From NCBI RefSeq assembly GCF_018143015.1, contig NC_054743.1:42550922-42614921 (forward strand): a stretch of DNA of 64,000 nt. Reading direction: 5' to 3'. The position numbers and the translations under genes were made by a program. Under the pieces are notes generated by a model, which did not search any database, was not told where the DNA came from, and saw nothing but the letters and a program-made list of their open reading frames with translations. Below, one piece after another: positions 1 through 58,700 of the stretch. Source of the DNA: Lytechinus variegatus. Its lineage: Eukaryota; Echinodermata; Echinoidea; Temnopleuroida; Toxopneustidae. Positions within the stretch are counted from its first letter, which is position 1. Every line of letters starts with the position of its first letter.

Positions 1-150
1 ACAAATATATTTTTTATTGTAATTAAAATATATATCAATTAATAACATGTTAGTTCTCTGTGTAGAGATAGTGGATAATTGCAATTGAATGAATTATGTA
101 TATTTCTCATCCGAAAAATCTCTCACATGGATTTTACTTTGATCTTCAAG

Positions 151-426
151 ACGAAACATGTACTCTTGGATGGGAAAGCATAGGACCAGGTTGTTACAGG
201 CTTCCACCGTCTCTTCTAAATAACTATGCCTCTGCAATTACGATATGTAACTCGATAGGAGGTCATCTATTCGTTCCGAATAGCTACGACGAGATTACAG
301 TTGCCGGTTCCTCTTACGTGCGACAATGGCAGAAGTCGGGGTCCGAATTTAATACCTGGATTGGGTGCAAATACGAGAAAGAAGATGAATCATTCGTTTG
401 TACAGATGGATCGCGGCTGAACACCG
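151..426 (+). CDS. Lectin-like gene exon: N-terminal two thirds of the C-type lectin-like domain
   Basis: The acceptor is ...gatcttcaag before 151 and the donor is gtgagt at 427. The exon is phase 1 at both ends (276 nt). It carries the CYRL, GGHL and WIGCKY landmarks. Confidence 0.75.
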
Positions 427-24805: not shown

Positions 24806-26810
24806 TATGGAAGCAGGAGACCGTCAAAAACACGGATATACGTCGTGTCGTAATTCAATTTACTACACGACGTAAATAATTACGTAGTGTAGTAATTCGA
24901 ATTACTACACGACGTAAATAATTACGTAGTGTAGTAATTCGAATTACTACACGACGCAATTCCGAATTACTGCCCAACGATTTAATGTCATGACGTTAAA
25001 TGAATTAGTGTCGCTACATCAAATAATTAAGGTCGTGTAGTAATTCGAATTACTACACGACGTAAATAATTACGTAGTGTAGTAATTCCAATTACTACAC
25101 TACCTAAATAATTACGTCGTGTAGCAAATAATTACTACACGACGTAATTCCGAATTACTGCTCAACGATTTAACGTCATGACGTTAAATCAACCAATGAG
25201 ACCGTTCGTTATATGAGCGCAATGCGAAGAGCTGAGACTACAGAGTATTGTACAGGAACGTACCGGCAGGAAGTTAGTTGGATGTCCTGACTAATCTCTT
25301 GGTGCCGCCAGTGGATAGAGTAAAAAAAAAACAAGGAGAGAGAGATTACATAATAGGAGAGAGAGAGAGAAGCGAAAGGGGGAGATTGGAAAGAAAAGAA
25401 GGGGGAACGGGAGAGAAAGAGAAGGGAAGTTAGTTGGATGTTCGATATTCGATATTCAAACTGTGAAGTTGGTTTGATATTCAGGTTCGATATGCAAACG
25501 CCTGTGAAGCTGGACCATTTTTTTTGGTGTGAAATCGCCATTTTGTTTCCGCTCAAGCGCGATCGCATCAATTGTATAGGTGTATACCCATCGTGTTCAT
25601 GATTACAAAAAGTGCTTAGAACGTCCAGATATCATCCCCGGATATCAAAGCTCTTCGGCTCGTGAGATATCATCTTCATGGACCAATTAATTATGCAAAC
25701 TGCTAGTCCTTAACAGGTCCCTTTTCAAGTCACTGATTAGAGACTACATTTAAAATAAAATTTAGCTTGCGCCCCACGCTCTGTTTTTTAAAAAAATGTG
25801 TGTCACCCTCCCCCTGGCCCCAAAATGTTACTTTGTCTCCTCCTAGGTTAAAAACCTTGGTGCCGTCACATGCCACGGACCCGATCCGCATAGCACTGCC
25901 CCCCCCAAAAAGTTCTACAACCGAGAATAGGAAATGATAATAGGAAAGAAAGGAAAGAAAGATGAAAGATACGTCATTTTATGCATACCGTGTCAAAATC
26001 AATCTCAAAGTTAAATTTTTTTTTCTCTCGCTGGCTCGAGACTTATTATTAAGCAAATTTTTGCTGCATATGCGCCATTGTGTGCCCCCTCTTTTTGTTC
26101 TTATAACGCACTGAGCTTGGGGCTTCGCCCTATTGCTCGGGGCACAATCATAAAACATCCTGTTCATACAATGATATGACCCCTCCGTTCTCCCTTCTCT
26201 TTCTCTCCCGTTCCCCCTCCTTTTCTTTCCAATCTCCCCCTTTCGCTTCTCTCTCTCCTATTATATATTCTCTCTTTCCTTGTTTTTTTTACTCTATCCA
26301 CTGGCGGCACCATGCAAGAGATTAGTCAGGACATCCAACTAACTTCCTGCCGGTACGTTCCTGTACAATACTCTGTAGTCTCAGCTCTTCGCATTGCGCT
26401 CATATAACGAACGGTCTCATTGGTTGATTTAACGTCATGACGTTAAATCGTTGAGCAGTAATTCGGAATTACGTCGTGTAGTAATTATTTGCTACACGAC
26501 GTAATTATTTAGGTAGTGTAGTAATTGGAATTACTACACTACGTAATTATTTACGTCGTGTAGTAATTCGAATTACTACACGACCTTAATTATTTGATGT
26601 AGCGACACTAATTCATTTAACGTCATGACATTAAATCGTTGGGCAGTAATTCGGAATTGCGTCGTGTAGTAATTCGAATTACTACACTACGTAATTATTT
26701 ACGTCGTGTAGTAATTCGAATTACTACACTACGTAATTATTTACGTCGTGTAGTAAATTGAATTACGACACGACGTATATCCGTGTTTTTGACGGTCTCC
26801 TGCTTCCATA
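24806..26810. mobile_element. 2.0 kb foldback element with ~620 bp inverted arms
   Basis: The arms 24806-~25430 and ~26186-26810 are near-perfect reverse complements from tatggaagcaggagaccgtc inward to gagagaaagagaaggg. The outer ~400 bp consist of short palindromic subrepeats (tacacgacgtaaataatt, gtagtaattcgaattac) and blocks around aacgtcatgacgttaaat. The ~755 bp middle has no transposase. It sits in the 5' part of the Tc1 element with a perfect 7-bp duplication. The superfamily is unassigned. Confidence 0.9.
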
Positions 26811-26817
26811 GTTCATC
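26811..26817 (+). repeat. Target-site duplication gttcatc (right)
   Basis: Identical to 24799-24805. Confidence 0.85.
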
Positions 26818-26837
26818 AGCACTGCAACATTAGCACC

Positions 26838-27658
26838 ATGGAGAAGTCAAAGCAATATACCGAAGACCGTAGGCAACGTGTTGTTGATTTACACAAGTCC
26901 GGTTCCTTTTTAGGAGTCATATCAAAGACTCTAATCATGCCTCGTGCTTCAGTGAAAACCATAATACGCAAGTATAACACTCTCGGCACAGTGCAGACTC
27001 TACAAAGATCAGGGAGACAGCGAAGAAAACTCAACCAGACAGCAGAACATAGACTTGTCCGTACAGTTCAGCTTAACCCTTGGATGACAAAAAAAGAGAT
27101 TTGCCAGGATCTGGAGGCTTCAGGAAGCAAGGTATCCCTCTCTACCATCAAGCGGTTCCTCCATGATCATGGACTGAGAGGCTGCAGAGCGAGGAAGAAG
27201 CCTTTACTCCAGGACCGACACCGTAAAGCCATACTGAAGTATGCTAATGAACACCTGGGCAGTGGCGGTGGCAGCATCATGTTGTGGGATGCTTTGCAGC
27301 AAGTGGTACTGGCTCACTCCTGAAGATTGATGGCACCATGAAGAGAGAGGACTACCTGAAAATTCTTCAGCTAAGCCTGAAAAGGTCCGCTAAGAACCTC
27401 AATCTTAGTCAGAATTGAGTTCCCACATGACAATGACCCGAAACACTCGAGTCCAGACCTGAACCCTATTGAGAACCTATGGACAGAACTCGAAAAGCAT
27501 GTTCGGTCAAGGAAACCAAGGAATGTGACTCAAGTGTATGCCATCTGCCAAGAGGAGTGGTAAAAAATCCCAGGGAAGGTCTGCAAGAAGCTAGTGTCTA
27601 GTTGTCCACGTCGACCGAAAGATGTGAAGACGAATGGAGGCAGTGCTACCAAGTATTA
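26838..27658 (+). pseudogene. Tc1 transposase pseudogene
   Basis: The frame opens MEKSKQYTEDRRQRVVDLHK and shows the paired helix-turn-helix DNA-binding region (SVKTIIRKYNTLGTVQ, SLSTIKRFLHDHGLRG). It then jumps from KYANEHL to GSGGGSIMLW, so the block with the first catalytic Asp is deleted. After a frameshift it continues through HDNDPKHSS directly into PDLNPIENLW, a second deletion. Two lesions in the DDE domain make an active enzyme impossible. Confidence 0.85.
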
Positions 27659-32014: not shown

Positions 32015-32093
32015 ATGGCACCAGTGGAAATCCAAGCAATACTTTTTGCTTCATGTATTTCATGGTTTTGTTTATCCACTGCGATAATTCTTG
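32015..32093 (+). CDS. Receptor exon 1: signal peptide
   Basis: ATG is at 32015. The hydrophobic stretch AILFASCISWFCLSTAIIL ends at donor gtaaga in phase 1, which matches the SRCR exon 7.5 kb away. The long intron makes this the least certain exon of the gene. Confidence 0.65.
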
Positions 32094-35000
32094 GTAAGAA
32101 CTACTCGATTACCTATTACCGGATGTACTACAAAAGTGCAGAGGTCTGGGGGGTGTTTCACAAAGATTTAAGTATGACTTAGAGTCGCACTTAAATGTCT
32201 AGTTGCGCGCAGTATAAAAGGCATGACAGCATTGGTCAGATCATGCCAAGAGGACGCGCACTTCTGCGTATTGATCAATAAGATTGCGCGTTGCATATCA
32301 TGTACGCGTCGACATTTAAGTGCGACCTAGGTCATACTTAAATCTTTGTGAAACACCCCCCTGCAGTCGGGTTTATGATGGGCCTATACGTCCAATTGAT
32401 CTATTTTAATGCATGTAATTTACGTTTAGGAAATCAAGACGAATTAAGATTTGGACTGACGTGAATGAATGAATGAATGAATGAATGAATGAATGAATGA
32501 ATGGACGGACGGAAGAAAAGGCAATACGATACGAATGGATGCGAATCGAGTGGTGATAGTTTCATTTGAGCACTTCGATTTTCTTTAATTACCTATTACA
32601 GGTATTAACGTGAGATATTTCGTACATCAGACAGTTCCAAACACTGGCAATAAAATATCTGAGCATTTCAGGTATAAATGTAGTACTATGGGAAAATCAG
32701 CAGTACACAGTACAAAACAAAGTTTATTGCGCATATTTCTAAAATCGATTAAGTAATCATTTTGACGTGTTAAATACATGTATTGTTCCAAGAAATGACC
32801 ACAATTAAGCAAACACTAAATAATATGCGGTTAGTCTATACACGCAACATAACATTACAGTCACATGCAGTTTCTTACCATTGGTGAGGTGATCACTTCC
32901 GGAATCCATTATCTACCGATTCAAATTGATAGTCATTTATCCCCAATGGAGTGATGCCTACATGTTATTACCATAACCCTAACCCAAACGTCACTACATT
33001 TATTATTTTTTTCTGCAGGAAAGTACTTTAAGAGATGGTCCAGGCTGAAGATATTCATATCTCAATGAACATGATGAATAGAGTAGAATTCACAGATCAA
33101 AATGCAGAAAATGTTATCAAAATTGAATATCAAATAACAAAGTTATTGAATATTAAAGAGTTGTATTATTCCTGTGAAACAGTTCTAGGCATGTCTTCAC
33201 GAATATTTAATGAGCAAAATGATAATGTCATATGGTCATTTCTTCTTTTGTATTTTATCATTGAAATTAGGTTTATTCAAAATTTTACTACCAAGAACCT
33301 AAACAGTTGGATTGACAACTTAATAAGTGTATTATTTATTTATTGGTGCAACTTATTTCATCATAATGGAGACAGATCATTCATACATGTATGAAAACAT
33401 GAAACAATTATGATTTCATGTAATAACATAAGAAAAGGATAAGTGGGGATGTGACGTCATCAGCCCACCCTAATGAATATTCATGATGACGTGCATATAA
33501 CTGTTTTCACAAAATATTGCTAAATATTAAGTTTTGATGACTCCGTTATTTGTTATCAGATTTTGATTGAATTTTCAGCATTTGCTTTGAGATTTTTAGA
33601 TAAAAATAAATTAAGCTCGAAGTATCCCTTCAAAAGCAAGAATAAAATGTTAAAGAAACAAAATTCTAGAGACATGAATTTCGTTTATTCCTAATGTTAA
33701 CACTCATGATTAAGGGGTGCATTTTTAGCACCACTGTACATTCAAATTATGCGCTCATTCCAGATAATAAATCCTTACTTGCCCTACTTGCTCCATTTTC
33801 CCAATTTCATACAAGTTTCCCATTGGTTGATAATCATGCGCTGAAAAGTGAACTTGATTGGATATGGCATGTTTCGATTGATTGTAAATCTCTGTATCGA
33901 TTTAATGATCTAGGTCAATAGTGATGGGTAAAACGACACTTTATCAAACGGCTAATGTTTACATATTTGACAGAAATGGGATTCCTCTTTATATCTTGTA
34001 TACTAAGTACGTTAAAAAGTTAAAGAAACTGATACCAATACACAACATTGCGAAAATCTAAAATGCCTTTAAATTTTAGTCTCCGAGACTCTAGCCCAGG
34101 GGGCGATTCCAGAGTATTTGATATAATAAGAATAGGGAGTGGTCTAAAGGTATATGTTTTCGGTTCACTCGAATGATAAGGTTCACCTCAAGATACATCT
34201 CCTTTCTCGACACTCTCTTCTTTTTTTATTTTCTCTTGTTATTTTTTTCATTTTCTGTTTTCTTACGATTCTTTTCATTATTTTCACCTCATGATCATGA
34301 CGATGAAGGGGGGGGGGGGGTGGTTGTTATTACCCCTTTCCCTGAAACGCTGCTCTTGATATTCAAACTTTTGAATAAGACAATTAGGTTAGTGTTATTA
34401 TAGCTACATATAGAAAGTAGATGAATTTCATTCATGTGTTACAATAAAAATGGTATATAACTCTAAATGATCGACAGATATTGTATCTTTTCAATGAACA
34501 TAATTACCAAAGACGTACATGTATATCAGAATTTTGATCTAGGCTATTTGGTGTACACTATATTTTATGGTACGGGGGGGGGGGGTGCTCCTGATAGGCT
34601 TTTGATAGTTTGAATGAAATAATTAAAGCATACTCCACCAATCTGGAAGTGAAATTCATTCATGACGTTAAAAACTTAAACTTAGAAAAGTTTCAAATTG
34701 TGATTTGAACCCATGACAGTTCATGGATTGACTACAGTGAACACATCCTATCACCGATACACATTTTAATATTCCTTGTTGACCTGCTAAGCTGACATTA
34801 CTTTGCTGTTTTCTTAAATCAATGCAAACACAATGGTTGCATACCACAGGTACAGATTAAAATTTGCCTAATTGAACTCTAAATCAACGTGTGTCCATGC
34901 ACATCGACTATACCAGGGTCATTTTCAACCACAAAGCAGTTCCGGTATCCGCCAAATAATCGCTAATACGGAAACAAGATTATTTGTAAGGCCTCTCTCA

Positions 35001-38000
35001 AAACGGTGAATGTATTATTTTTTTAAATAACAAACTATCTTGTATACACGTATTAGACTTACAGATCTATGGCAAAATTATTAGTAGAAATATCGATTTG
35101 CGGAGCCCGCTCGCTTTGCTCAGGCGGACATAATTTCAAAGTCGTTGAACATTATAAACACTCCACTTCTCCGGAATATACATTGCGTGTCAAAAAAAAG
35201 CCAACTATACACTTTTGAAATGGCTGCCAAACAAAAATATGTCACTTTTGGGGAAAAGACTGATATAACACGGAAAGCCGTTAACAAAAAAAAAACTTGA
35301 AAAAATGATTCATGCTTTAGTAAGCACTGCCCACTTAAACAAATGATATGGAAATCAGGCTGGCTAGGTGTAAGACTTCATTATCTTTCAGTTTTTAAGC
35401 GGCGATAGTCCCTTGGAACTTGGAAAGTTGAGGGTGTTGTGATGTATCAATGATCATATACATGTATATTGACTTTTGTTCTTCATACACACATGCATTT
35501 CAGTATGACCGTGTGTATGCCCTGCAGGTCGCCTGTGTGTTTCAACATATTTTCTTCATTTTTAAATACTTTTTCACTGTTTTTGTATTAATTATATGTA
35601 TTTATTCTGTTACTTGCATGCAGGGCCCCCAAGAACAACAGTGCTTTACACTGATGGGGTTACCCGGGGTAAACCAAACGAAATAAATAATAAATAAAAT
35701 CATGATCAATTTCGGTTGTGTAACAAAATTTCATGAATTGAAATTTAATGCATGAGTGAACACGAATTGCAATTTTTAGTGCAGCAATTTGACTTTTTTT
35801 CATGTGGATCTCAGCAGTGTGTTCATGGGATTTAGGAGAATAGGGGTGAAGCGGGTGAAGATGGTTGATGGGATAAATGTCGACATAAAATTTTAGCCCC
35901 CCCCCCTCTTGCGAAGTTAAGAGTATAATGCTAAATTGGTGATCTATTGAGATTGATTTTGGTTCCGTAAGCAAATTTCATGAGTTAATTAATTAATTGA
36001 CAATTAATGCATGAGTGAACATGAGTTATTATACAAGTGCAGCATTTTAAGTTTAAATCATATGGATCTTAGCAGTGTGTTCATAAGAGTCATAGTAGTC
36101 CAGGATAGAAGAAGCATAACCTTGTTTTTTAATATATACAATATTTTTTGATGGTTTCTTGTCAATTCGAGGGTGCTGATTCCGAATCTGAATGATGTCA
36201 CTCGTGTAACCTTGAGCATTTTTCGCAAATTGGCAAAATCCAATATGGCTGCCAAAATATGCACATTACCCATGAAAATCCTAAAATTGTCCACACATTG
36301 GCTATGAAATGCATAAAATTGTGTGGCAGGAGTGAAATACTCTCTGAAAAAAAATAACTTTTGACAAAATATTTATTTTTCTGATAATCAAAATGGCCGC
36401 CCAAGGCCTTTGTATACTCTATTATGTACAATATGAATAGGGAAAACTAATTTTCACAAAAATAAGCACTAAAGTGCAAAAAATCGCGATGTATGAACGA
36501 AGTAATATATGCGAATCATCATTACTTATGAGATATACTAGTATTATTTATTATGTCATATTTGGGAACATTTCTGTATTTTGATATCTAAAATAGCCGC
36601 CACTGGCCCAAACAGTATTGCGTACAATGGCAATAGGGGGCCAAAAAATTCACAAGAGTGATCAATAAAATGCATATTATTAAGATTAAACGAGTGGAAT
36701 ACTGACTTAAACATAATTGTTAACGAAACATATTAATAATATGCCATGTATGTGATGAATGTTTTATTTTGATATTCAAAATGGCTGCCAAAGGCCCTAA
36801 AAGTATTATGCACAATGAGAAAGAGGAGCAAAGAAATCACAAGAGAGTTCACTAAAATGCATATAAATGTGATGAATTAATGGGATACTGTCTAAAAACA
36901 TATTTTCTAACGAAATACATCATTCAGCTGTCAAGTTTGTGTTAAATACTGTATTTTGACTTTCAAAATGGCCGCCATAGACATTAACAGTAGTATGTAT
37001 AATGCAAAGTGGGAAACCAATATTCACAGGAGTGAGCACCATAAATGCACGTAATAGTGATCTATGAGTAAAATAGTGTCTGAAAGCAAAATTTCTATTA
37101 AGATTATCATTTATTCTGCCAGTTAGGTGATAAATACTCTTATTGGAAAGTCAAAATGGCCGCTACAGGCCCTTATGGTATTATGCACAATGTGAATGGG
37201 AACAAATTATTTCAACAGAATTTGGCTTTGCTTGGCCAAATGGTTATGTATGAGTGAAATGTTGTCTGAAAACAAGATTTATAACAGAATATATCATATC
37301 TTATGTAATTTAGGAAACTGTATTTCAGCATTCAAAATGGCTGCCATATGCCCATTTTGTGAACATTTTTTATCTCCACTCATATTGTATATTCTACGAT
37401 AAGGGCCTATGGTGGCCATTTTCAAATTAAAATGCAGCGTTTATCAATACACATGATATAATATATTTCGGTAGAAACCATGGTTTTAGACAATATTTCA
37501 CCCTTTCACAATTCACAATTATATGCAATATTTAGAGTCAAGCAAAGCCAAATTCTGTCAAAATATGTCCCATGTTACAATGTACACAATACTTTTAGGA
37601 CCTATGGCAGCCATTTTGGATTTCAAAGTACAGCATTATTACTTCCACGACCAATATGTGATGTATTTAGTTAGAAATAATGTTTAAGACAATATTTTTA
37701 CTGGAATCTCACAGTTATATGCATTTTATGATTCTCACTCTTGTGAAAATTAGTTCGTCCATTCTCATTGCATATATATGGCCTATGGCTGGCGGCCATT
37801 TTGAATGTCAAAATACAGCATTTATCACATAAATGGCATATTAATGGCAATGATGCTTTTAGTCAGCATTCCACTCGTTTATCTTAATAATATGCATTTT
37901 AGTGCTCACTCTTGTCATTTTTTTGGCCCCGGCCATTGCCATTGTACATACTCTTTGGGCCAGTGGCGGCTATTTTAGATATCAAAATACAGCAATATCC

Positions 38001-41000
38001 CCATATATGACATAATAAATGATATATCTCGTTAGTAATGATGATTTGCATATATTACTTAGTTCATACATCACGATTTTTGCGGTTTAGTGCTAATTTT
38101 TGTGAAAATTAGTTTTCCCTATTCATATTGTACATAATAGAGTATACAATGGCCTATGGCGGCCATTTTGAATATCAGGAAAATAAATATTTTGTCAAAA
38201 ACTATTTTTTCAGAGAGTATTTTACCCCTGCCACACGATTTCATGCATTTCATATCCAATGTGTGGACAATTTTAGGATTTTCATGGGTAATTTGCATAT
38301 TTTGGCGGCCATATTGGATTTTGCCAATTAGCGGAAAATGCTCAAGGTTACATGAGTGGCATCATCCAGATTCGGAATCAGCACCCTCGAATTGACAAGA
38401 AACCATCAAAAAATATTGTATATATAAAAAAACAAGGTTTGGTCAAGTTTCTATGGGGCCTATCCTGGACTATAGTAATATGTACCTGTTGCATGCAAGG
38501 GGGCATGGGGGGTGAGATAGGGTAAGACTTGATTAAAAGGGCATTCTTCTTCTTTGTGTTATTTTACAAATTACAATTAGTCATGGGCCCCCTCCTCTCT
38601 CTTTCTCCCGGATGATATTCTGGATGGTTGACTGCCAACTCACCAATAGTTTATGGGTCAGTTTATTTTTTTAATGATTACTAAGAAATTGGTAGTAATG
38701 ACGGTTTATGAGGTAATTCAATAAAAAAAAACCTGAATGTTTGCTTGACAGTTCGCTCTGGATTTCGTGCGTTTATGTAATATCAACAGTATCGATCTCA
38801 ATAGGAGATATTGGGAGAGGGGACTCAGGGAGGACCTGTAGGGGGAGGCTAATTTTTTTTTACCAGATGACCCTTATCCCATGAACCTTCTTCACCCACT
38901 CAACTCCTACCTCCCTCCTCTCCTGAGTCCCATAAACACACTGCTGAGATCCACATGACAAAGTGTGAAATGTTGCATTAAGAAATGTAACTAACGTTCA
39001 CCCATGCATTAAATTTAAATTTAGTAAGTCATGAAATTTGCCCCAAACTACCAAAATTGATCATTGTTGGTCATTAATTCATCACAGCACCCTCAACTTT
39101 GCAAGTTCCAAGGGACTCATTTCTCATAAACTGAAAGAAATTGAAAGTCTAATTCCAGGCCACCATAATTGTAATAACGTTGTTTAAGTTGGTAATACTC
39201 ACTCGAGCATGAATAACTTTTGGTGTCATTTTTTTTTTTGGGGGGGGGGGGGCATATCAAAAGTTTATTATTATTTTTTAGACGTACTGTAGTTGTCTGT
39301 ATCATGTGAACGAACTGACTAACCTCACTAGCATGGTCACGATTCGAATAGCTCAGTGAAAGAGAGTAGTCGACAATTTTCAGCCTCTGAATTCTTGCCA
39401 CGTAATTAAGATTGTCACCTTTAAGCACTTTTTGTAGGTAGTGTTCTACCGAAGACGGTGACGGTTGTGTGATCTTTCATGTGATAAATAGCGCGAATTT
39501 TAATTTCACAATAAAACCGGAATTAACGATTCTCTTGTCATCTTTTACACCTTCATAGATGTGAGGTTACAAGATGGCGATTCCCCAACAAACGGCAGAG
39601 TAGAGATCAACGTCGAGGGCATCGGATGGAATACAATTTGTGGGAGCTCGTGGGACATAAATGACGTCACAGTGACGTGTCGACAGCTTGGTTTCACCGG
39701 GGCACAGATGGAGCTCGTGAGGTCGGAGTTTGACTCGGGCACGGCACCAATATACAAGAAAACTATCCATTGCAAAGGAAGTAAGGACCGTTTACGTTTT
39801 TTTCTTAATTTTTTTCTGTTGTTATAAAAATGCTTTATTCATTGATACACCTGTAGCGATGATCCACACAAAATATTAAGACCACATTAGATCGACTGAA
39901 GGAATAATTGCTTTAAACCCATTTGATGGTCTTCAATGAATTAAATACGTCATGTACGATTCTGGCAAGTGTGGCCTGGCCTGCTGTCTTTGAGAAAATT
40001 TGTCTTCCATTTATTTGTTTCTTCATCAGTCTTTCATTGAACTTTTAAATGTATTAACTTTTTTTAGTAAATATTCTTACTCTACAGTCTTAATGCCTTG
40101 TGATTATCACTGAAAGAATGTGGAGGCTTCCTCGCAAGATAATTGAAAGACCAGTGCGAGTCAACGTAATAATTTTCAAACGATTTTTTTTATGAAAGAT
40201 ATTCAAGAGACCATCAAAATACAACAAAAATACCGGTGAAAAATCACGGTAGGACTTAAGTTTGCAAGGCAATGAGTATCATTGAGACTTTAAGAGTTCT
40301 ATGGTGGTTTCGGTCAGTCCTTTTGAGTTCTTTAAGTGGTCTCCGTCAGTCATGAGATTTTATATTTTATCTTTCTAAGATGTCTGGCTGTATAAGTATG
40401 CTAGGTAATCCATCGTTGATATATCTCAATAGCCTCGGTAAGCTTTCGGCTGTGTTCAAAGTTTTAAGGTGATTTTTCGAACTTTTATGACAATAATACA
40501 TGTGATTTATCTCCTTTCGTTAGATGAACAAAATTTGGACGATTGCCGGATGACGACACAAAACTGTTACGGCAGCTCAAACTCAGCCGGTGTAGTGTGT
40601 CAAGGTAAGCTCCTAACTTTTTTAATAAGTATGTTTGCCACCAGCAAAGCCTATCTATTTGATTGATGTACCTCGCATTTTTGAATACACTTGACGGTGG
40701 ACCTGGTGGGTGTTTCCTTCAGTTCTTAGCAAGTATTCCGAGCTACTTTACGAACAACTTGTGATCCTATCTTCTGGTAAATGATATACACCTAATTTTC
40801 AATGATACTATAAAATTTATAAAATTCGTTTGTAAAGTCGCTCGTAACTTACGGTCAGATTTATGGAACACCTACTTGAGAACCGATCCATAAACATGAT
40901 GCAGCTTTTCGTAAGCTATGAAGGACTTTACGCATAGCAAGTGATTATACTAAATTATTTAGCCAAAATTTCCCTGTTCACCACAGAGGAAGTGAATTTT

Positions 41001-44000
41001 CCGGAGCTCTAATTAAGCCTAGATAAAATAATTTGAAGAAAAACGGAAGTTCCGTTAACAACACTAACTTTATATTACATGGATCAGTTTAAATTTAACC
41101 TGATGGGAATCACGTACTGTGCAAATAACTCTTATTTCCATATGTCTTATAATCAGATCGTATAAGTAATAAAGAATTATGCAATAAATTTCATCAAGTA
41201 GAACGTCTGAGACGTCATCGAACATATCGATAAACTATTTGTTTTTGTTGATGTCTTATTTATTTGATCTTTTCTTAATCAATGGGTTCGACACCAGATT
41301 CATTGATATAATTTGAATCTCATTATACCACACAGGGCCATCTTATCTCGGCTGTTACGGAGACAACCCGCAAGCACGATTATTTACTGGAACATCATAC
41401 GTCGATTCAACTAGGATGACAATTAACGATTGCATTACTTTCTGTAGACTACGCGATTTTGCATACGCGGGACTGGAGCTGGGCTCTGAATGCTACTGCG
41501 GAGATGAGAATACAGATTTCGACCTGTACGGACTATTCAGCGACGCTGTCTGCAGACACACATGCAGTGGAAATCAGTTAGAAACCTGTGGGGGCATTGC
41601 GAAAATGGCAGTTCACAGAACAGGTAAAAAATGAAGAAAGACACCCCGGTTGACAGATTTGGGAATAGGATGCGGCTGCATCTCTAACATGTCTGGAGCA
41701 GACTTGTCGACCAGGGTCCATTCAAAAGAGTCCTGACCTCAGTAAGGCCTACTCCCATTAACCCAAATAACGCCAGTAGAATGACGGAAAATAACAGTCA
41801 AAGTACATGCGCACAAAAAACAAACCAGGAACCGAGTTTTCATAGATGATTGCATGATACCAACTCATTTCTTTGGTATGAAGGGGTTAGACAAAATTAT
41901 TAGGTCATTCAGTTATCGTCGTGTCACTTGTTTGCAGTCATGTAGAAGTGATTCAGCCTCGTTCTTCTTTGGATGATTATGCTGATGCAATACATGATTA
42001 TGAAAAAAATGATACATGAATGTATAAGTAAGGTATTTACTTTGGAACCATTGGGCTTAGCAGAACACAATATTTGAAATATTGATAAAGTTTAAGTAAT
42101 AATGCACACACCAGGTAAATTTTGAGCAGTCTAACGCACCCCAACCAAAAGCTAAGGGTCGTGATGTCTAGAATATTGTCAACGATATGCATGATGTTGA
42201 TGCTCAGATAACATTTTGCCAATTTCTAGTTGATGAAGATAAAAATGGATTTATTTTAATGGTACACCACCTATTTTTTACCAGATTGGGTGGTGTTGTC
42301 TAGTGGTTAGAGCATTGGCCTCATAATCGCAAGGTTGTGAGTTCGAATTCCCACTCTGCCACTGTCTCCACTTTGATAAAAAGGCCCGAGAGTAATATCT
42401 GTCGTCTATAAGGTCAGCCACTATGACTGATTAACCTAGACGTGAACATGTTTCCTGGGTAATGGGTTATATACCAGCTTGGCGTTTACCAGCAAAAATG
42501 CTGTCCTGCCGAGTTCATGGGAGTTACCATAAAGAGAAACAGAAAAACAGAAAGGAACACAATTATGTTCACATCTAACGTAGATATTAGTAATGGTTAC
42601 AATCGAGCCGTTATCATTTTCCTTGTGGGAGTTTCATAAAGCTGTTCTTAGAGTAACAAGCGATTTTAGTAAACGTCTTAGAGATGTTCCTACATGTTTA
42701 GATGTTAATTCAGTGACGAATTATCATGTAGCGCAGGAAAGAAGAGGCGAGGGAACGTCAGGCTCATACAATGAAAGTGGAGGGGTACCTATTCTTTGGC
42801 AGACAAAAGGTGCCCTTCCACTTTCTTCGTCCGAGCCTAATATTCCGCCGCCTCTGCAAGAAAGGATAACCAATCGTTCATAAAGTCACTCATACCTAAC
42901 AATCGGCCTCATGAAGCAGCCACCTAGGTAATTCCCTCAAGTATGTATAAGACCTTCCTAAAAGAGATCATTTCGAGGCTAACAAGGTTGTAATTATTAC
43001 AGATTATATTCAGTACAGTAAATAAACTGAAGATTTACACGGGAAATAAAAGTTGAACTTCCAGGAAAGATTATTTTTTTATAGAATCGCCCTCCTTATA
43101 TACAACCGTAGTTGTGCACAATATGGTAGGAAAAAATGAATGCAACTTCATTGCTTCGCTCTTCATAGATTGCCATTTGCGTTATAATTACTATCGGTTT
43201 CATCGTTTATGCTAATTCATGTATCGGCCTGATGACTTAACTTGGTAAAATAAATTGTTTTGTTTCGAAATTCCCTGACCCCCTTACATGCTTATCAAAT
43301 TAACGGTTATGAAGGTTTTGCCGTTAATGAGGATAACGTCATTGTGATTGAAATGACAATAATGACAACTATTAATCTTTCCAGCTATCCTGACGACAAC
43401 TCTCGTGCCAACAACTACCAATTATTCCTTGCCAAGAACACCCAGTCCCATAGAAATGACCAGCCCTGACCTGGACATCACCCTGGTCTCCACTACATCA
43501 GCAGCCTCAGAAGTGTCATCAACCAAAAGTTTGAAAGCTACTCAACGTTCTTTGTCAGGTAGGCCTATGTTCTGTTTGGTGTTATTATTCTACATTATAT
43601 TGTTAGGCCTGTACGAATGAACAGAATCAAGATGTAGCGGTAAAGTATGACTATCATCGCTGATTGAGGACGGACATCTTTATGACATAATGCTACCTCC
43701 ATGTACATGTACATCACAACACGACCCTTCCTTTATAGTAAAACAAGTAATCTAGTCTTTATTCGATTCAAACACTAGCATCTGTTTATTTCAAATCTAA
43801 CATACGATAAAATATGGTAATGGAATCAATACATTTCCAAACAAACCTGAACCATTTTAATTATAAAGTTGTGCTGTTCTAAATAAACATTCTGTTATAT
43901 CATGTATATGGTACCGCTTTAGAATTACTTCTAACCACTTCCTTTGATAATTCAGACTTCTTTACCAGAATCTTAACTTAAAGTTTGTCTGTTTCCATTT

Positions 44001-44972
44001 TGCTTTCCATTTGAAGATGGGACGATGATGATAATCGTGTACATCTTGGGGGCGCTGTTGTTCTTTTGCCTCGTTATAATTTTTGGCTGTCTCATCTGGA
44101 ACTGCAGACTGAGGTATGTAATCACAGTAATGATTTCAATTCATTCAGACTGATCGCCAATGCAAGTTTGCCCGGTGTATCAGTTTCCGGCCTGGTATCG
44201 AATCCCTTGCTTATGATTGCGAGAGCGCTTGAATACTGGTTGTATTGATTTATATCGTTTGCAAAGGATGTCTGACTTGTCACTTCATTGGCGAATCAAC
44301 GCGTTGTGTTATGAATTTCTGATAACACATTAATTTGCTATTTTCAAGAGAGGTTGATTTATTGTGCTCAATAAACTAGCGTGCTAGTCTCTAAGACAAA
44401 ATGTCGATTTTTATTTTCAAATTTTAACTTTATATTTTATTGCAATCGACTTTGACATGATTTTTTTTCATTGGCGTAATTATGACTTTTGAATAAAGTT
44501 TGATATGCGTAAGATATAATTTTCAAGCATTTTGTCATTAGTAAATACAGGCTTTAACAGTGTCGTGAAAACTGGTAATAACGTTGAATAGACATTCATT
44601 CGCGATATTTACGTAACGCATAATGACTTCTTTTTTTGCAGGTCTAGAACTACGTACGGAGTTTCTGATGATTATCACACACCTCCGCACAGCAATCAGA
44701 ATGTTAATGTGCGTCCTTACATGACCCTCAGTGAACGACGGCCCGACGGCAATGGTTACCAGAGCTTGAGTGTCCAGCGAAAGGAAGCACAGAGGGGCGC
44801 TATGCCGGAAGGACCATACGCAGACAGTTTAGGCGGCGAGCCGGTGTACCAGGAGCCCGGTGTATACTTGGAACCGGACAACCGTCTTTCGGTTGCATAC
44901 AAAGCCGGTGATCCGGATGCAGATGATTTGTTCTTAGGAGGGGGGAATGAATATGAAACGCTTGGTGTATAG
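32015..44972 (+). CDS. SRCR-WSC type I membrane receptor with ITAM-like tail, complete 7-exon gene
   Basis: Exons 32015-32093, 39559-39780, 40524-40604, 41336-41623, 43385-43558, 44017-44113 and 44642-44972 join without phase conflict into 423 aa. Order: signal peptide (1-25), SRCR domain (27-128; DVRLQDGDSPTNGRVEI, six cysteines and a two-exon split, both as in group A), WSC domain (129-222, eight cysteines), Ser/Thr/Pro-rich stalk (224-281), membrane span (about 285-307) and a tyrosine-rich cytoplasmic tail. The tail has Y340MTL, nine residues, Y353QSL (ITAM-like), then VYQEP, VYLEP and terminal YETLGV. SRCR modules bind proteins or microbial surfaces, and WSC modules are thought to bind carbohydrate. 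A pattern-recognition or adhesion receptor signalling through SH2 proteins is inferred. Introns 1-5 are phase 1, so the ectodomain modules are shuffling-competent. Confidence 0.85.
32149..32361. mobile_element. 213 bp MITE, family A copy 2 (receptor intron 1)
   Basis: It has the same ends and arms as 21465-21679, and its interior (gcattggtcagatcatgcc, gttgcatatcatgtacgcg) matches at roughly 85-90% by eye. Confidence 0.9.
32463..32503 (+). repeat. (gaat)n microsatellite
   Basis: About ten perfect gaat units, followed by two gacg units. Confidence 0.95.
32510..35290. other. Receptor intron 1, unassigned part
   Basis: AT-rich DNA with G tracts at about 34309-34321 and 34576-34586 that may mark decayed MITE ends. 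No exon was recognised. Confidence 0.4.
35590..35700 (+). repeat. Retroposon 3' tail within the left palindrome arm
   Basis: ttacccggggtaaaccaaac followed by an aaataaataataaataaaat tail looks like the end of a SINE or CR1-like copy. It coincides with the stretch absent from the opposite arm. Confidence 0.45.
36095..38478. mobile_element. Foldback element of ~188 bp repeats (ggcggccattttgaat)
   Basis: The ends tagtccaggatag and ctatcctggacta are inverted and flanked by tag on each side. In the left arm a unit beginning near tcaaaatggccgcc recurs at about 36385, 36578, 36768, 36952, 37142 and 37330, a spacing of 184-193 bp. The right arm carries the same units reversed. No transposase frame. 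A single arm end lies at 16625-16850, so it is a dispersed family. Confidence 0.85.
39559..39780 (+). CDS. Receptor exon 2: SRCR domain, first part
   Basis: The acceptor is cttcatag and the donor gtaagg. It encodes VRLQDGDSPTNGRVEI, WNTICGSSWD and VTCRQLGF, the core SRCR signature. The position after RQLG is Phe, where some SRCR groups have Cys. Confidence 0.95.
40524..40604 (+). CDS. Receptor exon 3: SRCR domain, last part
   Basis: 81 nt between tttcgttag and gtaagc. It supplies NEQNLDDC, NCYGSS and AGVVCQ, the closing cysteines of the SRCR fold. Confidence 0.9.
40700..40890. mobile_element. Degenerate MITE in receptor intron 3
   Basis: ggtgggtgtttcctt at the left and aggaacacc-like ggaacacctactt at the right are diverged inverted ends. 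The interior includes agctactttacgaacaactt and its diverged complement. Confidence 0.4.
41336..41623 (+). CDS. Receptor exon 4: WSC domain
   Basis: A single phase-1 exon holding the whole domain: YLGCYGDN, MTINDCITFC, FAYAGLELGSECYCG, VCRHTCSGN, ETCGG and MAVHR. All eight expected cysteines are present. Confidence 0.95.
42286..42551 (+). mobile_element. tRNA-derived SINE, copy 2 (receptor intron 4)
   Basis: gtctagtggttagagcattg (A box), the loop ctcataa, and gagttcgaattcccac (B box) are followed by the same body as the 14390 copy (taatatctgtcgtctataag, taccagcttggcgtttacc). It ends in gagaaacagaaaaacagaaa. Confidence 0.85.
43385..43558 (+). CDS. Receptor exon 5: Ser/Thr-rich stalk
   Basis: 58 codons, with roughly 40% Ser+Thr plus several prolines, no cysteine, and LTTTLVPTTTNYS near its start. 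It is probably O-glycosylated. Acceptor ctttccag, donor gtaggc. Confidence 0.85.
44017..44113 (+). CDS. Receptor exon 6: transmembrane segment
   Basis: It starts after tttgaag and encodes MIIVYILGALLFFCLVII then FGCLIWNCRLR, a clear membrane span with a basic cytosolic stop. The donor gtatgt is in phase 2. Confidence 0.9.
44642..44972 (+). CDS. Receptor exon 7: tyrosine-rich cytoplasmic tail
   Basis: The acceptor tttttttgcag is followed by 110 codons and TAG at 44970-44972. Ten tyrosines include three YxxL motifs (YMTL, YQSL, YETL) and two YxEP motifs. Confidence 0.9.
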
Positions 44973-52406: not shown

Positions 52407-52734
52407 TTAGAACTTGCACAGAAATGATATGATGATGTAAACACAGTATGCGACCGTAATTAAAAACAACGAATAGAACATTAGTTTATCTATGACGATT
52501 GCAGTTTCGCGCCAAATTTCTGCAATCATTTCCGGGTCACAATGCATGTGATTTGGACAGGTGTCACGGATATTGGCGTTCACGTTGTTTGCATGGAGCA
52601 GCGGATTGACTGTCCTATACTGAGGGTCGTCTTCTCGAATTTCTATTCTTGATGTGCCTGGCGAGTGGTGATCTATACAGGTCTGCGGAGTTTCCTCGGA
52701 TGTAATGTGGCTTCGTTGAGTTCTTCGGCGTCTT
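52407..52734 (-). CDS. Receptor subunit exon 8 (intracellular loop, TM4, stop)
   Basis: It begins with an RRRRTQRS segment. EIWRETAIVIDKLMF is the typical helix leading into TM4, and the protein ends FLCKF. The phase-2 junction with exon 7 fits. Confidence 0.9.
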
Positions 52735-55700
52735 CTAAAGAATACGGTAAAGACAATAGAACATTTTTTTATGCTAGATGTATTTCAGGGTCTTGTTCAG
52801 AAATTACCTTTGTACTTTACGGACTAAAAATAAGGCAGGGCCGGATCTAGCGTAGGTCTGTACTACAATGACGAAATTAAGTGATTGTAATGGCAAAACC
52901 ACATTAGGCTTGATACACGCAGGAACTTTTGCCGACTAGGCCTACATGAAAGGCGGTCGTACGCAAGGTTGTTTACAAGCTAGGACTGGTATTCTATATA
53001 CTGTATATCCATACGTACTAATTCACGAAGTATACCTTAAGTATCAGAATGTTGTGTCTTTTGATGAAAGAGTAACAAAAAATGATTCATTTCGATCAAG
53101 ACGTCATGTTCCAAAGACAAGGGACAATAGAATCACACATTTTCTAACGGTGAGATTGATATAACTTATCACGGTTATTCTGATAATCGTTTTGTGTCTG
53201 TGTCCCTAAATATGTTGTTCAGGGAGGAATTCATCTTTGTTTCTATCGACAATGAGGAGAAAATTAGAAGCTGTCATACTTTATATAATAAGATACAAAA
53301 GAAAGTGAGTGGATGACGTCATCCTTCTCTTCATTTGCATACCGACCAGGATATGCATACGTTTTGTGAAATTAAGCGAAACAAAATAAAGAAGCTTATT
53401 TTACACTCAATTTTGATGAAATTTTCAGTGTTTTGCTAGCTGAACTTCTCTCTATTTATTCATATCAACTTTATATCGGGTGGACTTGTCCTTTAAGATC
53501 TTGATATTGAAAAAAAGATATTAGGCTCATGCTTTGCCCTCGTATGAGGTCGATATATTTAAGGAGATGCCTATCATCTAGTGAGTTTCTGAAACGGTAT
53601 CTTGATGTATTTATTTTCTCAGGTCTGAATATCAATAATTCTCAGCCCGCGCTTCACGCTCGCAATAATAGTTTAGTTAGTTACATGTATACGCATATAT
53701 ATGACTACACACAACAAATAGAATGTTGCATCTTAACGTCTTACTATTGACGAATATTTACACTCGCATCGATTATGTTTTATTTTGACTGGTCATGTTC
53801 TTACTAAGAGTAGTAAATACATTTACACTTTGAAAGGGTTGCGGTGTTAGTACTTGCCCCTGGCACCGTTAGTCCTAGATACGCCATTGCTTGAGCATCA
53901 ATTCTGCAATCTTGTGGGTGCAGCCACATTTCTTTGTGTGTACATGTGGATACTTACTCATGATTTGCCTGTTGTGTTTTCAAGATCTCCTTGGTTCTCT
54001 TTCCATTGTAGAGGGAAAGAACGGGTCCATATAGCATCAATCTTCTAAGGAAATGTGGAAGCTCGGTCTGTCCACCCATGTGGTAGATACGCAGAACCGC
54101 GATGGCGCAAAAGACCTCAACTCCACACATAGCTATCATCGAGATGAAGAAATCCACTGAAGATGGCAAAGAAAAGGAGAGGCCGTCATGATTATGCGTT
54201 TTAAAGTGAGGGGCGTAATGTATTTTAGTCGAAGTTTTATCATTTAAAAACCAATTTTCAGACGAATCACAATATTCACAAAGGTTTAGATGCTCTGAAA
54301 AACAAAGGAAATCAGGGAAAAAATAAACGAGGCAGAATATAGGCAAAGCCTTGTATAGATGCACATGGGCAAGAACCTCGAAATAGAACTGCTATTCCGA
54401 GAAGCCAACCAAGACATATTCTTATCACAACGTAGAGGAGGGCGAGGGAGTGGGTGGGGTCTGACCTATTTACATTTAAGAACAGTTTTTTTTATGATAC
54501 AGCCCTGGGCTAATTGTATCCACGTAAATTAATGTATTCTTCCGTTACCAAGAATTGACGTAGTTTCCCCGCTCGGTGGCATCCTATCGGCTACGAGCTG
54601 CTGGAAGAGGATCAAAGCCAGTAGGTTACTGACAGCTAAGGTCACCTTCTCACCAGAGGCTGGATGAAGCCAACAGACAATGGTCATGAGCATTGTGAAG
54701 AGCAAGGCGGGCACCACCACCGTCTTAGTGTAGAACAGAGACATTCGTCGAATGGTAATCTGGTAAGTTAAGGCGCTCCAGGTACGATTATCACAACACA
54801 GTTCCTTGTCAAGGTTTTGGCCTACAGAGTGTTGCAAGACCCAGACATCGTTCTGATGGAAGAGGTCCATTGTGGTATCGGAATGCCGAGAAAGTCGAAA
54901 GTCAACCTGCGTCACGGAGAAGAATTTACGAAATTGACAAGATTATGGGGGTGAGGGGAGAGTGGCTGCTAAATCAGTTCTAGTCTTCTCAGGTGTCAAT
55001 ATAGTCCATAACAAGACTCCAGACAAGTATTATCAAGAGAAGATATGAACGTTTGGTTTATATAATTTACAAATACTTCTTTTTCGATTGCAGAAGCGTT
55101 TGTCTTGTCAGGAACTTATTGGTGGAGATCTCTGGTACCTTAAACAATAACAATAAATGTGAGGGGACACATCGATAGACGTAGATTACGAAATGTATTA
55201 TTGATAATGGAAAGTAAAAATGTAAGATGAAAAATGTTATAGAAAACTATGGTTGATAAATATTAAAAATTTTAGATTTATAATTTCACAGGAAATTATA
55301 CCTTCTTCTGAGTGGCTTGTTGATAAGATTGGCTTCGAGAGTTATTAGGGAGTTTGGGCCTCCACTACACACGTCGAATTAAAAAATAGAGAAAGAATAT
55401 TTTTACGTGCCCTTCATGACTATGAACAACCAAGATGTCCCTTTTTCAAAATTGGTGAATCAAATCAGCAGTTTCGTCCCGGACTCATTGCAATTTTTCG
55501 TCAGCTTCGAACTTTATCAATTTTTATCAATTTATCAATTTTCGATAAAGACCTCCCAGCGGTTCATAATCATTTCACATGCATTTTTAATATATTTACG
55601 GTGTTTTCGAATTTAGACGAACAATAATAGGACTTTAAAGCCACATTACATACCATCTGTTTCATGTACGACCAGGGACCGAACGTGACGTTACACCTTT

Positions 55701-58700
55701 GAACATCGTAAGGGAAGTATGTAATGTCTACTTTACACAGTGACGTCACAGTTGCAGGAAAGTACCAATCCATCTCGCCATTAGGAGACACCATAATGAA
55801 TGTTTCTTGAAAGTTGATGAATTCCTTCTGAGCGCTGAATGATGGAAATATATTGAACGATATGGGAATCAATTTAACTCTCATTGTCTTCTACATGATT
55901 GTTAGACAGTTCATTTCCATGATTGTGGCTGGCTGTGTTAGGTTGTGACCTTCACCTGATATTCCCACCTTATAGGTGAGTATGCAATACTTTATCCGCT
56001 TTATCTTGTTGTTGTTGTTTTTTTTTGAAAAATTACGATTGCATTTAGGTTACTTATGTCTTTTGGTCTTTCAATGGTCATTAACTTGTGATCGGCCTTG
56101 TATAAAAAGGCGATAAAGAATATACAATACTGCAGATCAGCATCCCCCCCTGCATTATGTTGGCGATGCTCGCTCAGTCCTAGCACCTCTCGTGATATTC
56201 CCTCTCGCAACTCTACCCCTCTTATCATGCCTATACTGACTGGTTTATGCCTTTTTATCATCTCGAGTTGGGTATAAATCAAAGACCGCCAAAACCCGTA
56301 ATATAACCGCTATTTTTGCTTCCTGTATCTACAACTAAATGATACTCCTTACTTTTCATAGAGGGAAATATCCGGAAGCCAGACGTCACTTGGTTTGACA
56401 GTTGTAATGTTTACTCCTCCATACTCACGAGGATCCCACGTTAGATTCTCATCAATCCACATCTAAAGAAGATCGATTGGACACAAACTTCATTAACTCC
56501 GAGTGATGAATTTGTTTCTCAATGTAGCAAAGATTAGCAATTAACAATGGATTTTATGTGAATTATAAAAAAAAATCAGCGTGATTATTTGATTCGTTAG
56601 ATTATGGTGCCGAATATTTCTGTCTTTGATTAACAAATACAGGGTATCTCTGTCAATATCACCTTGGTAAAAAAATACGGCTCTTTCCCCTTACTTGTTT
56701 TTCATTCTTCTTCTTATTAGCGGGATTTCGAAAACTGGCGTTTGCAATATTAAAATGAAATCTATATAAATGCGCAATGGATCATATAACGGTTGAATCC
56801 AGCCCTTTCTGATTAGCAAAAAAGGGATAACATCAAAGTTATAAAAGAAAAAAAAATCCAGTATTGGCGTAAAAGGGGTGGGTATGGACTGAATTTGGCC
56901 TCGAAAATTAGTAACCGATTTATCAAAATTCGCACCAGGGGGTTATTCAAGTCGTGAGGTATCCCACGTTCATTTCCTTATGCCACCTCATGCCTTGCGT
57001 CGTAATAATGATAGCAGAACTTTGTTAATTAGAATTCATGGCTTAATGAAGCAGTCTTCTGGGGAGCTTGTCATGAAACCAATACTCATTGTTTTTCACT
57101 GATCAGTTTGTTATAGGCTTCTACATTCGTCACTTCTACAAAATATGTCTTAAAGTGATTGGTTAACATTGGTTTGACTTTTAAAAAATCTGAGCTAGAA
57201 GGTCACACTTGTCACCTGTGTCTGTGATATGTTCCAAAAATGAAGTCCAGAAAAAATTGCATTCGAAAATGATTATTTAGTGCTTCAAAAATTGAAATAT
57301 AAAGTGACCGGAAACACCATCTTAATTTCATCCTATACACTTATGTGTACTATTTAGGTGTCTATAAGACGCCTATTTACAAAATCAGGGTTTGCCCCTT
57401 AGTTTTAGCTTTTCATTCTCAATAATGGTTGTTTTCAGGGTTTATTAGTTCTAATACATGCACTTGTACACATGTTTCTTCTTGGTTTGAGAATTTTTTA
57501 AATCGGCTGCTCACAAAGTTAAATAATACCTTTAAGCAACTTTGACAGTAAAAATCGCTGGCAAGATTTTTTGGGTGATTACCGTTTTGGGGGAGAGATT
57601 TCCGCCCATGCGCACATGAACGTTAAACCAAAACCAATCCTAATGCAAAAACGAAGTCTAGGCAATCATGCTAAATTTGAAAATGAATAATCATTATTAT
57701 TTTTCATGGCAATACTTAATTGATTGGTTGACGTCAAATATGACAGTCAATTAACATCTACTATTATAGATTTTATGCACTTACCATTCTCATAAAGTGG
57801 AGTACGGTGATCTGTTGTTTAGCTTCATCCTATTGTATAGATAGGGATATAAATAAATATATATTAGCAACCCAGATCAGGTTGCGCGTCATTCTATAAT
57901 TTGAAACTAGCATGCATGCTTCCAACTAAATTTACGAAAGGCGATTAAAGTACTCTTTCAGTCAGCATGGTTGCCTCAACCATCATCGCGAGAAAATGCA
58001 AATGAATATTTACCACGATAACAGACATCTTATTGATTTGAAAGTGAACTGCCAATTTCAAGCCGTTTCCCTCAATCCTCTTTTTTTTCTTGATATTGTG
58101 AATCAGATATCTTTTCATCGGCATTTGAGCATGTACACAACAAACCTCAATATCGAATGCGTTTGTTCACATACTAATAGATCTTAAGATTTTCTTGGAT
58201 GGCCATATTGCTTTGGCTGGTCATAACTTCTAATCGGAGACGATTTCTGGTGTATCATCAAACACAGTGGCGTAACTACGGGGGGGGCATGGGGGGCGTG
58301 CCCCCCCAATCGGCTGGCTAAAAAAAAAAAAAAAAAAAAAAAACGGGGAAAAGGAGAAAAAGAGGGATAAAAGAAGAGAAACGTAGTGGGGAAAGACGAA
58401 ATTATGTTCAATATAAATATTATATTATAATTATCTTGTATTACATAAGAAGTATTTTTCATAACTTTATGAAACATTATTTGCTGAGGGCCTAAGCATG
58501 CTAAGTCTTTATTGTTCCTGGTGCTCGCATAGACTGTTAACGAGATAATCCTGTTGTACTAAAATCTCCCGTTTTCAAATCAATATACTGTACACCAAAT
58601 AATTATATTTTCTCGCAATTCGAGTTATTATTTCATGTAGTGACATTTGCTTCTTTTTCATGACTACTTAAAGTGATTGCCCTATTCAAGGTCTTTATAT

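What the first reader, a model, noticed from the sequence alone, without database searches (positions are those of the whole stretch)
32015..44972. SRCR + WSC receptor with an ITAM-like cytoplasmic tail
Seen: a seven-exon gene whose phases all agree encodes signal peptide, SRCR, WSC, Ser/Thr stalk, one membrane span and a ~115-residue tail with YMTL, nine residues, YQSL, plus a third YxxL at the C-terminus. Known: ITAMs are paired YxxL/I motifs, usually 6-8 residues apart, that recruit tandem-SH2 kinases; WSC domains occur in yeast stress sensors and polycystin-1-type proteins. Inference: this may be a single-chain activating recognition receptor joining a scavenger-receptor module to a putative carbohydrate-binding module. 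I do not know this combination as a described receptor class. The 9-residue spacing is slightly long.
Basis: partly seen in the sequence, partly recalled or inferred. Interest (0 to 1): 0.72.

Follow-up and report, generated by a model that had tools for sequence, protein, structure and literature searches.

The report
Scavenger-type receptor with phosphotyrosine-docking tail
This animal gene encodes a one-chain cell-surface receptor that joins two recognition domains to a tail packed with tyrosine signalling motifs, and relatives in the same genome also have tyrosine-rich tails, which suggests how a large invertebrate recognition family might signal.

Summary
Seven exons (32015-44972) with agreeing GT/AG sites and phases encode a 423-residue protein: signal-peptide-like start, group-A-type SRCR domain, WSC domain, Ser/Thr stalk, one membrane span and a 110-residue tail with YMTL-x9-YQSL, a C-terminal YETL and three YxxP motifs. 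A second copy on the same chromosome differs at 8 of 1272 coding bases, 7 of them silent, so the frame is under protein constraint. Exon 1 is the least certain.

SRCR plus WSC is not a new pairing: a published survey counts 36 WSC domains in the sea-urchin SRCR superfamily. Nine residues lies inside the published 6-12 ITAM range. Of 16 WSC genes examined (this one included), 9 gave a recognisable tail exon, and all 9 carry 7 or more tyrosines. The YxxL pair occurs in three: this gene, relative H with the identical gap of nine, and, weakly, K. The relative with the closest WSC domain lacks it. Another tail, with YDEI and YxxP motifs in the three copies read, occurs 11 times in an array.

Best reading: a phosphotyrosine-docking recognition receptor, perhaps ITAM-like. 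No phosphorylation, SH2 binding, transcript or orthologue could be tested.

The parts
32015..32093 (+). Exon 1: start codon and signal-peptide-like stretch (aa 1-27)
   Evidence: phase, donor GTAAGA; hydropathy; identical in second copy. Least certain exon: one of four candidate openings, and a stricter donor rule drops it.
39559..39780 (+). Exon 2: first part of SRCR domain (aa 27-101)
   Evidence: 222/222 bases identical in second copy.
40524..40604 (+). Exon 3: end of SRCR domain (aa 101-128)
   Evidence: 81/81 identical in second copy.
41336..41623 (+). Exon 4: WSC domain (Pfam match 41344-41595)
   Evidence: five silent differences from second copy.
43385..43558 (+). Exon 5: Ser/Thr-rich stalk (aa 224-282)
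   Evidence: one difference, R278G, in second copy.
44017..44113 (+). Exon 6: single transmembrane span (about aa 285-309)
   Evidence: relative H has the same exon phases and a similar end, WNFKLR against WNCRLR.
44642..44972 (+). Exon 7: cytoplasmic tail, 110 aa, and stop codon
   Evidence: protein identical and two silent changes in second copy; two matches in the genome search at E up to 10, this exon and its copy.
44718..44729 (+). YMTL (Y340), first half of ITAM-like pair
44757..44768 (+). YQSL (Y353), second half; 9 residues between the two tetrads
44952..44963 (+). YETL (Y418) near the C-terminus
44673..44684 (+). YHTP (Y325), YxxP motif
44847..44876 (+). YQEP (Y383) and YLEP (Y389), YxxP motifs

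Best explanation
A type I recognition receptor of the SRCR superfamily. The SRCR and WSC domains stand on a Ser/Thr-rich stalk and bind a surface ligand (microbe, dying cell or matrix; unknown). Clustering lets Src-family kinases phosphorylate the tyrosine-rich tail. The YMTL-x9-YQSL pair then docks a tandem-SH2 kinase (Syk or Shark type) as an ITAM would, and the YxxP sites dock adaptor SH2 domains, driving uptake or activation. Shown: the gene, its domains, topology by sequence, constraint on the coding frame, tyrosine-rich tails in relatives. Inferred: ligand binding, phosphorylation, docking and outcome. My estimates: phosphotyrosine docking about 0.7, ITAM-type docking of a tandem-SH2 kinase about 0.4.
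For: Gene model and domains. Purifying constraint: 7 of 8 coding differences between two copies are silent, tail protein 110/110 identical with two silent changes. Tail tyrosine content 8.2%; six Yxx[LIP] in 0.05% of shuffles. Relative H (C17:22130585-22140091) keeps the exon phases found and the position of the tail intron and has YSDL-x9-YESL. All nine recognised family tails have 7 or more tyrosines, and one tail occurs in 11 uninterrupted copies at 75-100% identity, the query included; YDEI and YxxP were read in three of these (A, D, E). Two places in the genome show SH2, SH2, kinase in order on one strand. Known precedents: FcgammaRIIA YMTL-x12-YLTL (PMC6433993), Draper ITAM with Shark (PMC8092387), WC1 tail YEEL phosphorylation (PMC2906472).
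Against: Only 3 of 9 recognised tails have the pair (ours, H, K), and K's is expected in 8% of shuffles of its long tail; the relative with the closest WSC domain (P) has no YxxL/I at all. Tails of ours and H show no alignable similarity beyond the motif (Smith-Waterman P 0.76), so the shared gap may be coincidence: with eight relatives' tails read, at least one exact-x9 pair is expected by chance 3.3% of the time. No acidic residue stands close before Y340. The second copy may be an allele, so it shows constraint only over a short time. One survey places Syk as a vertebrate innovation (passage of PMC8662651). No transcript, phosphorylation or binding data.
Confidence: 0.5

Rival explanations
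1. The tail is a phosphotyrosine platform but not an ITAM: it works through single SH2 sites (YxxP for Crk/Nck-type adaptors, YDEI/YEEI for Src-family SH2 in relatives), and the YxxL pair is incidental or used singly.
For: YxxP is the motif shared most widely, in 7 of 9 recognised tails: A, D, E (four each), N (five), M and K (two each) and ours (three); 4 YxxP in A reached in 0.35% of shuffles; that tail occurs in 11 copies. Six of nine recognised tails lack the pair. The motif-to-adaptor assignments are recalled.
Against: The x9 pair recurs in H, the relative closest in overall layout of those modelled, whose tail has no YxxP.
Confidence: 0.3
2. An endocytic scavenger receptor: YMTL, YQSL and YETL are Yxx-hydrophobic sorting signals read by clathrin adaptors without phosphorylation; no kinase signalling.
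For: All three fit Yxx-phi (recalled motif); CD163A carries YREM and internalises ligand (PMC2906472 passages).
Against: Endocytosis needs one such motif; it does not explain the YxxP and YDEI sites, nor tyrosine-rich tails up to 532 residues.
Confidence: 0.2
3. An inhibitory or modulatory receptor whose YxxL sites recruit SH2 phosphatases.
For: YxxL is also the ITIM core (PMC6433993 passage); H's LVYSDL has the hydrophobic -2 residue of ITIMs (recalled).
Against: The three YxxL of this protein have R, N and N at -2, not the ITIM I/V/L/S (recalled).
Confidence: 0.05
4. The gene model joins exons of different genes or takes a wrong first exon, so the receptor as written is not made.
For: Intron 1 is 7.5 kb with a 4.1-kb inverted-repeat insert; exon 1's donor is middling, and there are four candidate openings.
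Against: Same order and phases in the second copy and, for exons 2, 3, 4, 6 and 7, in relative H. Only exon 1 (and H's first and stalk exons) stays open.
Confidence: 0.05

Closest known systems
SRCR superfamily of sea urchin, members with WSC domains (PMC10855680)
   Same: SRCR and WSC in one superfamily's proteins; many tandem members; here also a large WSC family, mostly on one chromosome.
   Different: The passages and two sections that I read do not discuss tail motifs; ITAM has 0 occurrences in its main text.
WC1 / CD163c-alpha (group B SRCR co-receptors)
   Same: SRCR ectodomain, one span, conserved Y-(Q/E)-(D/C/E)-(I/L) tail motif; its phosphorylation is required for WC1's potentiation (PMC2906472 passages).
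   Different: Group B with several SRCR domains; no WSC mentioned in the passages seen. Ours has six SRCR cysteines (group A count, PMC13228809 passage) in two exons, one SRCR domain, and a YxxL pair.
FcgammaRIIA (single-chain ITAM receptor)
   Same: ITAM-like pair on the ligand-binding chain itself; first half YMTL identical (PMC6433993 Table 2).
   Different: Ig ectodomain (recalled); 12-residue gap against 9; tested function.
MEGF10 / Draper / CED-1 engulfment receptors
   Same: Invertebrate and vertebrate single-pass recognition receptors with ITAM or YxxL tails; Syk or Shark reads MEGF10 and Draper (PMC8092387 passages).
   Different: EMI/EGF-type ectodomain and NPxY motif; our tail has no NPxY.
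Kremen1 (WSC structure)
   Same: WSC domain, E about 1e-16, all eight WSC cysteines aligned.
   Different: Kringle, WSC and CUB domains (PMC3927609 passage); no SRCR.

Membership tests
SRCR superfamily (group A) | SRCR domain over the curated cut-off | tested here: met
   73.4 bits against 26.1.
SRCR superfamily (group A) | Six cysteines rather than eight | tested here: met
   Counted by reading the translation: six in residues 32-127; criterion from PMC13228809 passage.
WSC domain proteins | WSC domain with its eight cysteines | tested here: met
   64.4 bits against 27.8; eight cysteines aligned to Kremen1, counted by eye.
ITAM | Two YxxL/I separated by 6-12 residues in a cytoplasmic tail | tested here: met
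   YMTL-x9-YQSL; range from PMC6433993, PMC9731471 and PMC3528668; cytoplasmic side is by prediction.
   Nine residues. FcgammaRIIA at 12 does not meet it either.
ITAM | Acidic residue a few positions before the first tyrosine (recalled) | tested here: not met
   NVNVRP precedes Y340.
ITAM | Conserved in relatives | tested here: inconclusive
   Kept in second copy and in H; K has x12; six other recognised tails lack it. No orthologue from another species could be reached.
ITAM | Phosphorylated by Src-family kinases and bound by tandem SH2 | not testable with these tools
   Bench work.
ITAM | A tandem-SH2 kinase exists in the genome | tested here: inconclusive
   Two places with SH2, SH2, kinase in order; sequence not read, so two neighbouring genes are not excluded.
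ITIM | I/V/L/S at -2 of YxxL (recalled) | tested here: not met
   R, N, N at -2 in this protein.
WC1/CD163 family | Group B SRCR array | tested here: not met
   One SRCR domain with the group A cysteine count.

The most novel reading that the evidence does not exclude
A lineage-expanded family of SRCR-WSC pattern-recognition receptors signals directly through phosphotyrosine tails of several classes: a single-chain ITAM class (this gene and relative H, gap of nine) and a YDEI/YxxP class multiplied in a tandem array. The array would then be a diversified set of ITAM- and adaptor-coupled immune or engulfment receptors that evolved apart from vertebrate Fc and antigen receptors.
Probability: 0.3. 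Interest if true: 0.72.

Novelty: new variant of a known kind. Interest (0 to 1): 0.5.

Why it matters
The purple sea urchin has 357 SRCR genes by one survey (104 scattered and 253 in tandem; legend in PMC10855680), thought to recognise non-self, but how the membrane-bound ones would signal was not addressed in what I read. Tyrosine-docking tails, multiplied across an array and in one branch ITAM-like, turn that into a direct test: cross-link the receptor and ask which tyrosines are phosphorylated and which SH2 proteins bind.

Tried and rejected
Searched viral contigs with the whole protein: four pattern matches, no relative. Tested for homology between our tail and H's: none beyond the motif. 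Took a C2 locus as a possible tandem-SH2 kinase: by my reading of its SH2 exons it looks like PLC-gamma, so not counted. Looked for other SRCR/WSC exons in the window with the protein: none beyond two chance-level hits. Looked for a known domain in four tails (ours, K, M, A) and in H's ectodomain: no tail matched Pfam at E up to 0.1. Considered chance in a Tyr- and Leu-rich tail: the YxxL pair alone is only moderately unusual, the density of Yxx[LIP] is unusual. Did not run structure prediction, since the spliced protein is not a letter-for-letter stretch of the window and the domains are already clear by sequence. The genome-wide search with H's tail did not complete, so how many genes share its x9 pair is unknown. 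The SRCR-exon search of the genome also did not complete and not repeated. A note of mine gave 15 as the number of WSC genes examined; the right count is 16.
Full report
What is there. Pfam places an SRCR domain at 32-127 (E 2e-20) and a WSC domain at 131-214 (E 1.1e-17). By sequence the SRCR domain matches solved structures of CD163, CD6, LOXL2 and others, and the WSC domain matches Kremen1 at about 1e-16 with all eight cysteines aligned. I count six cysteines in the SRCR domain, the group A number (criterion in a passage of PMC13228809), split over two exons. A 58-residue Ser/Thr-rich exon, one strongly hydrophobic segment and a 110-residue tail follow.

Is the gene real? A search of the window's own genome (869.6 Mb in 33 contigs) with the tail exon gave two matches at E up to 10: this exon and an identical one at C4:28603824-28604153 on the other strand, 14 Mb away. 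The surrounding DNA is an inverted copy, about 93-99% identical in its long blocks. Across the coding sequence 8 of 1272 bases differ, 7 of them silent (dN 0.001, dS 0.024); the tail has two silent changes and no replacement. If about three quarters of random changes are non-silent, one or none of 8 has a chance near 0.0004. Whether the copy is an allele kept in the assembly or a recent duplication I cannot tell; similar paired loci occur elsewhere (for example C17:15998476 and C17:17728969). Exon 1 is less certain. A scan for ATG plus hydrophobic stretch plus phase-1 donor between 28.0 and 39.56 kb found nothing, exon 1 included, when 5 of 7 donor positions had to fit; with 4 of 7 it left four candidates at three start codons, this among them.

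Is the motif more than chance? The tail has 9 tyrosines and 8 leucines. Of 200,000 shuffles, 1.8% contain a YxxL/I pair 6-12 apart, 1.7% three or more YxxL/I, and 0.05% six or more Yxx[LIP]. So the pair alone is only moderately unusual; the density of SH2-type sites is the stronger signal. The spacing is not too long: Table 2 of PMC6433993 gives FcgammaRIIA as YMTL-x12-YLTL and the consensus as 6-12 (passage); PMC9731471 and PMC3528668 give the same range (passages). It misses the stricter 6-8 rule and the acidic residue before the first tyrosine, which is recalled.

Relatives in the same genome. The WSC profile gave 143 matches (150 of 171 candidates scored), most on C17. I fetched stretches around 15 other WSC loci. 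At least 4.5 kb upstream was fetched for nine of them: seven (A, B, G, H, I, J, P) show an SRCR match on the same strand, one (F) only an ambiguous extension, one (O) none; for the other six (C, D, E, K, M, N) little or no upstream DNA was fetched. A tail exon could be recognised in 8 of the 15, so 9 of 16 with ours: H, K, M, A, P, D, E, N. All nine have at least 7 tyrosines; N's exon start is not settled. In H, K, A and P the intron just after the membrane span is of phase 2, as in ours (read by eye). Relative H (C17:22130585-22140091) has SRCR about 53% and WSC about 43% identical, the same phases for exons 2, 3, 4, 6 and 7, and a tail with YSDL-x9-YESL. Its stalk and first exon were not identified. 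K has YLGL-x12-YASL in a 532-residue tail with 25 tyrosines, where 8% of shuffles give a pair. P, whose WSC is the closest (48%), has 7 tyrosines and no YxxL/I. A, D and E carry YDEI twice and YxxP four times; M and N carry YEEI and two and five YxxP. A search with A's tail found 11 uninterrupted matches (itself included) at 75-100% identity in C17:23.85-24.43 Mb, plus pieces at two more places and one weak match; I read the letters of three of the 11 (A, D, E). Tails of ours and H are not alignable beyond the motif (Smith-Waterman P 0.76), so the shared gap of nine is either a constrained remnant in a fast-changing tail or coincidence; chance gives at least one exact-x9 pair among eight relatives' tails 3.3% of the time (treating A, D and E as independent).

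Downstream machinery. SH2 and tyrosine-kinase profiles (68 and 151 matches; the kinase scan scored 142 of 788 candidates, so it is partial) show two places with SH2, SH2 and kinase in order on one strand: C16:15547749-15576268 and C11:34805248-34771767. A third, C17:1786798-1831884, has overlapping SH2 pieces before a kinase and is less clear. This is the layout of a Syk or Shark kinase, but I could not read the sequence, and two neighbouring genes are not excluded. Literature is divided: a sea-star egg survey lists Syk and HTK16 among its tyrosine kinases (PMC11593052 passage) and an oyster kinome lists Syk (PMC4883820 passage), whereas PMC8662651 lists Syk as having emerged in vertebrates (passage).

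How it most likely works. A ligand clusters the receptor through SRCR and WSC; Src-family kinases phosphorylate the tail; the YxxL pair may seat a tandem-SH2 kinase and the YxxP sites adaptors; uptake or activation follows. The gene, topology by sequence, constraint and family context are shown; ligand binding and every step after the membrane are inferred. Draper with Shark and MEGF10 with Syk are the working precedents (PMC8092387 passages); WC1 is the precedent for an SRCR receptor whose tail tyrosine must be phosphorylated (PMC2906472 passages). Proteomics of a starfish lists SRCR proteins among candidate coelomocyte surface markers, without mention of WSC (PMC13409769 passages).

Novelty. 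SRCR with WSC is already counted in print (PMC10855680, two sections read; passages). Full-text searches for WSC domain with SRCR (2 papers), WSC with SRCR as whole words (5 papers) and ITAM, SRCR, sea urchin, tyrosine (1 paper) showed, in listings and the passages opened, no description of ITAM-like or phosphotyrosine tails in SRCR-WSC proteins. Of the 5 papers I opened 3 (PMC10855680, PMC3927609, PMC8242945); the paper I saw only in the listing. The library lacks most papers of subscription journals; the 2006 sea-urchin immune gene survey (recalled) was not seen. Hence: a new variant of a known kind.

Noticed in passing
window about 35278-39413 (intron 1): About 4.1 kb present here but absent from the second copy at C4:28.6 Mb; it holds nested inverted repeats (arms 36118-36352 and 38205-38439, 94% complementary) and four 108-nt direct repeats at 187-188-nt spacing. 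Looks like a foldback-type mobile insert, or a deletion in the copy.
   Followed up: partly
G000 C4:28.59-28.62 Mb against window 23421-55194; C17 near 16.0-16.7 against 17.7-18.4 Mb: Near-identical paired stretches in the assembly, one inverted and 14 Mb apart (DNA compared), others about 1.73 Mb apart (seen only as equal-scoring WSC pairs): retained haplotypes or recent segmental duplications.
   Followed up: partly
G000 C17:23.85-24.52 Mb: Array with 30 WSC exon matches by my count; one Tyr-rich tail occurs in 11 uninterrupted copies there, and two more places match only in pieces with stops.
   Followed up: partly
window 54529-55890, - strand: Exons of a nicotinic-type ligand-gated ion channel (Neur_chan_LBD and Neur_chan_memb matches); the ORF at 52407-52784 may belong to it but matched nothing.
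   Followed up: no
window 93-440, + strand: C-type lectin exon (Lectin_C, E 1.4e-5), perhaps of another recognition gene.
   Followed up: no
window 26793-27323, + strand: Tc1/Sleeping-Beauty-type transposase fragment, beside a 190-bp tandem repeat at 26427-26774.
   Followed up: no
L037 (C2:10534000-10543999): PLC-gamma-like locus by my reading, with what look like alternative or duplicated N-SH2 exons.
   Followed up: no
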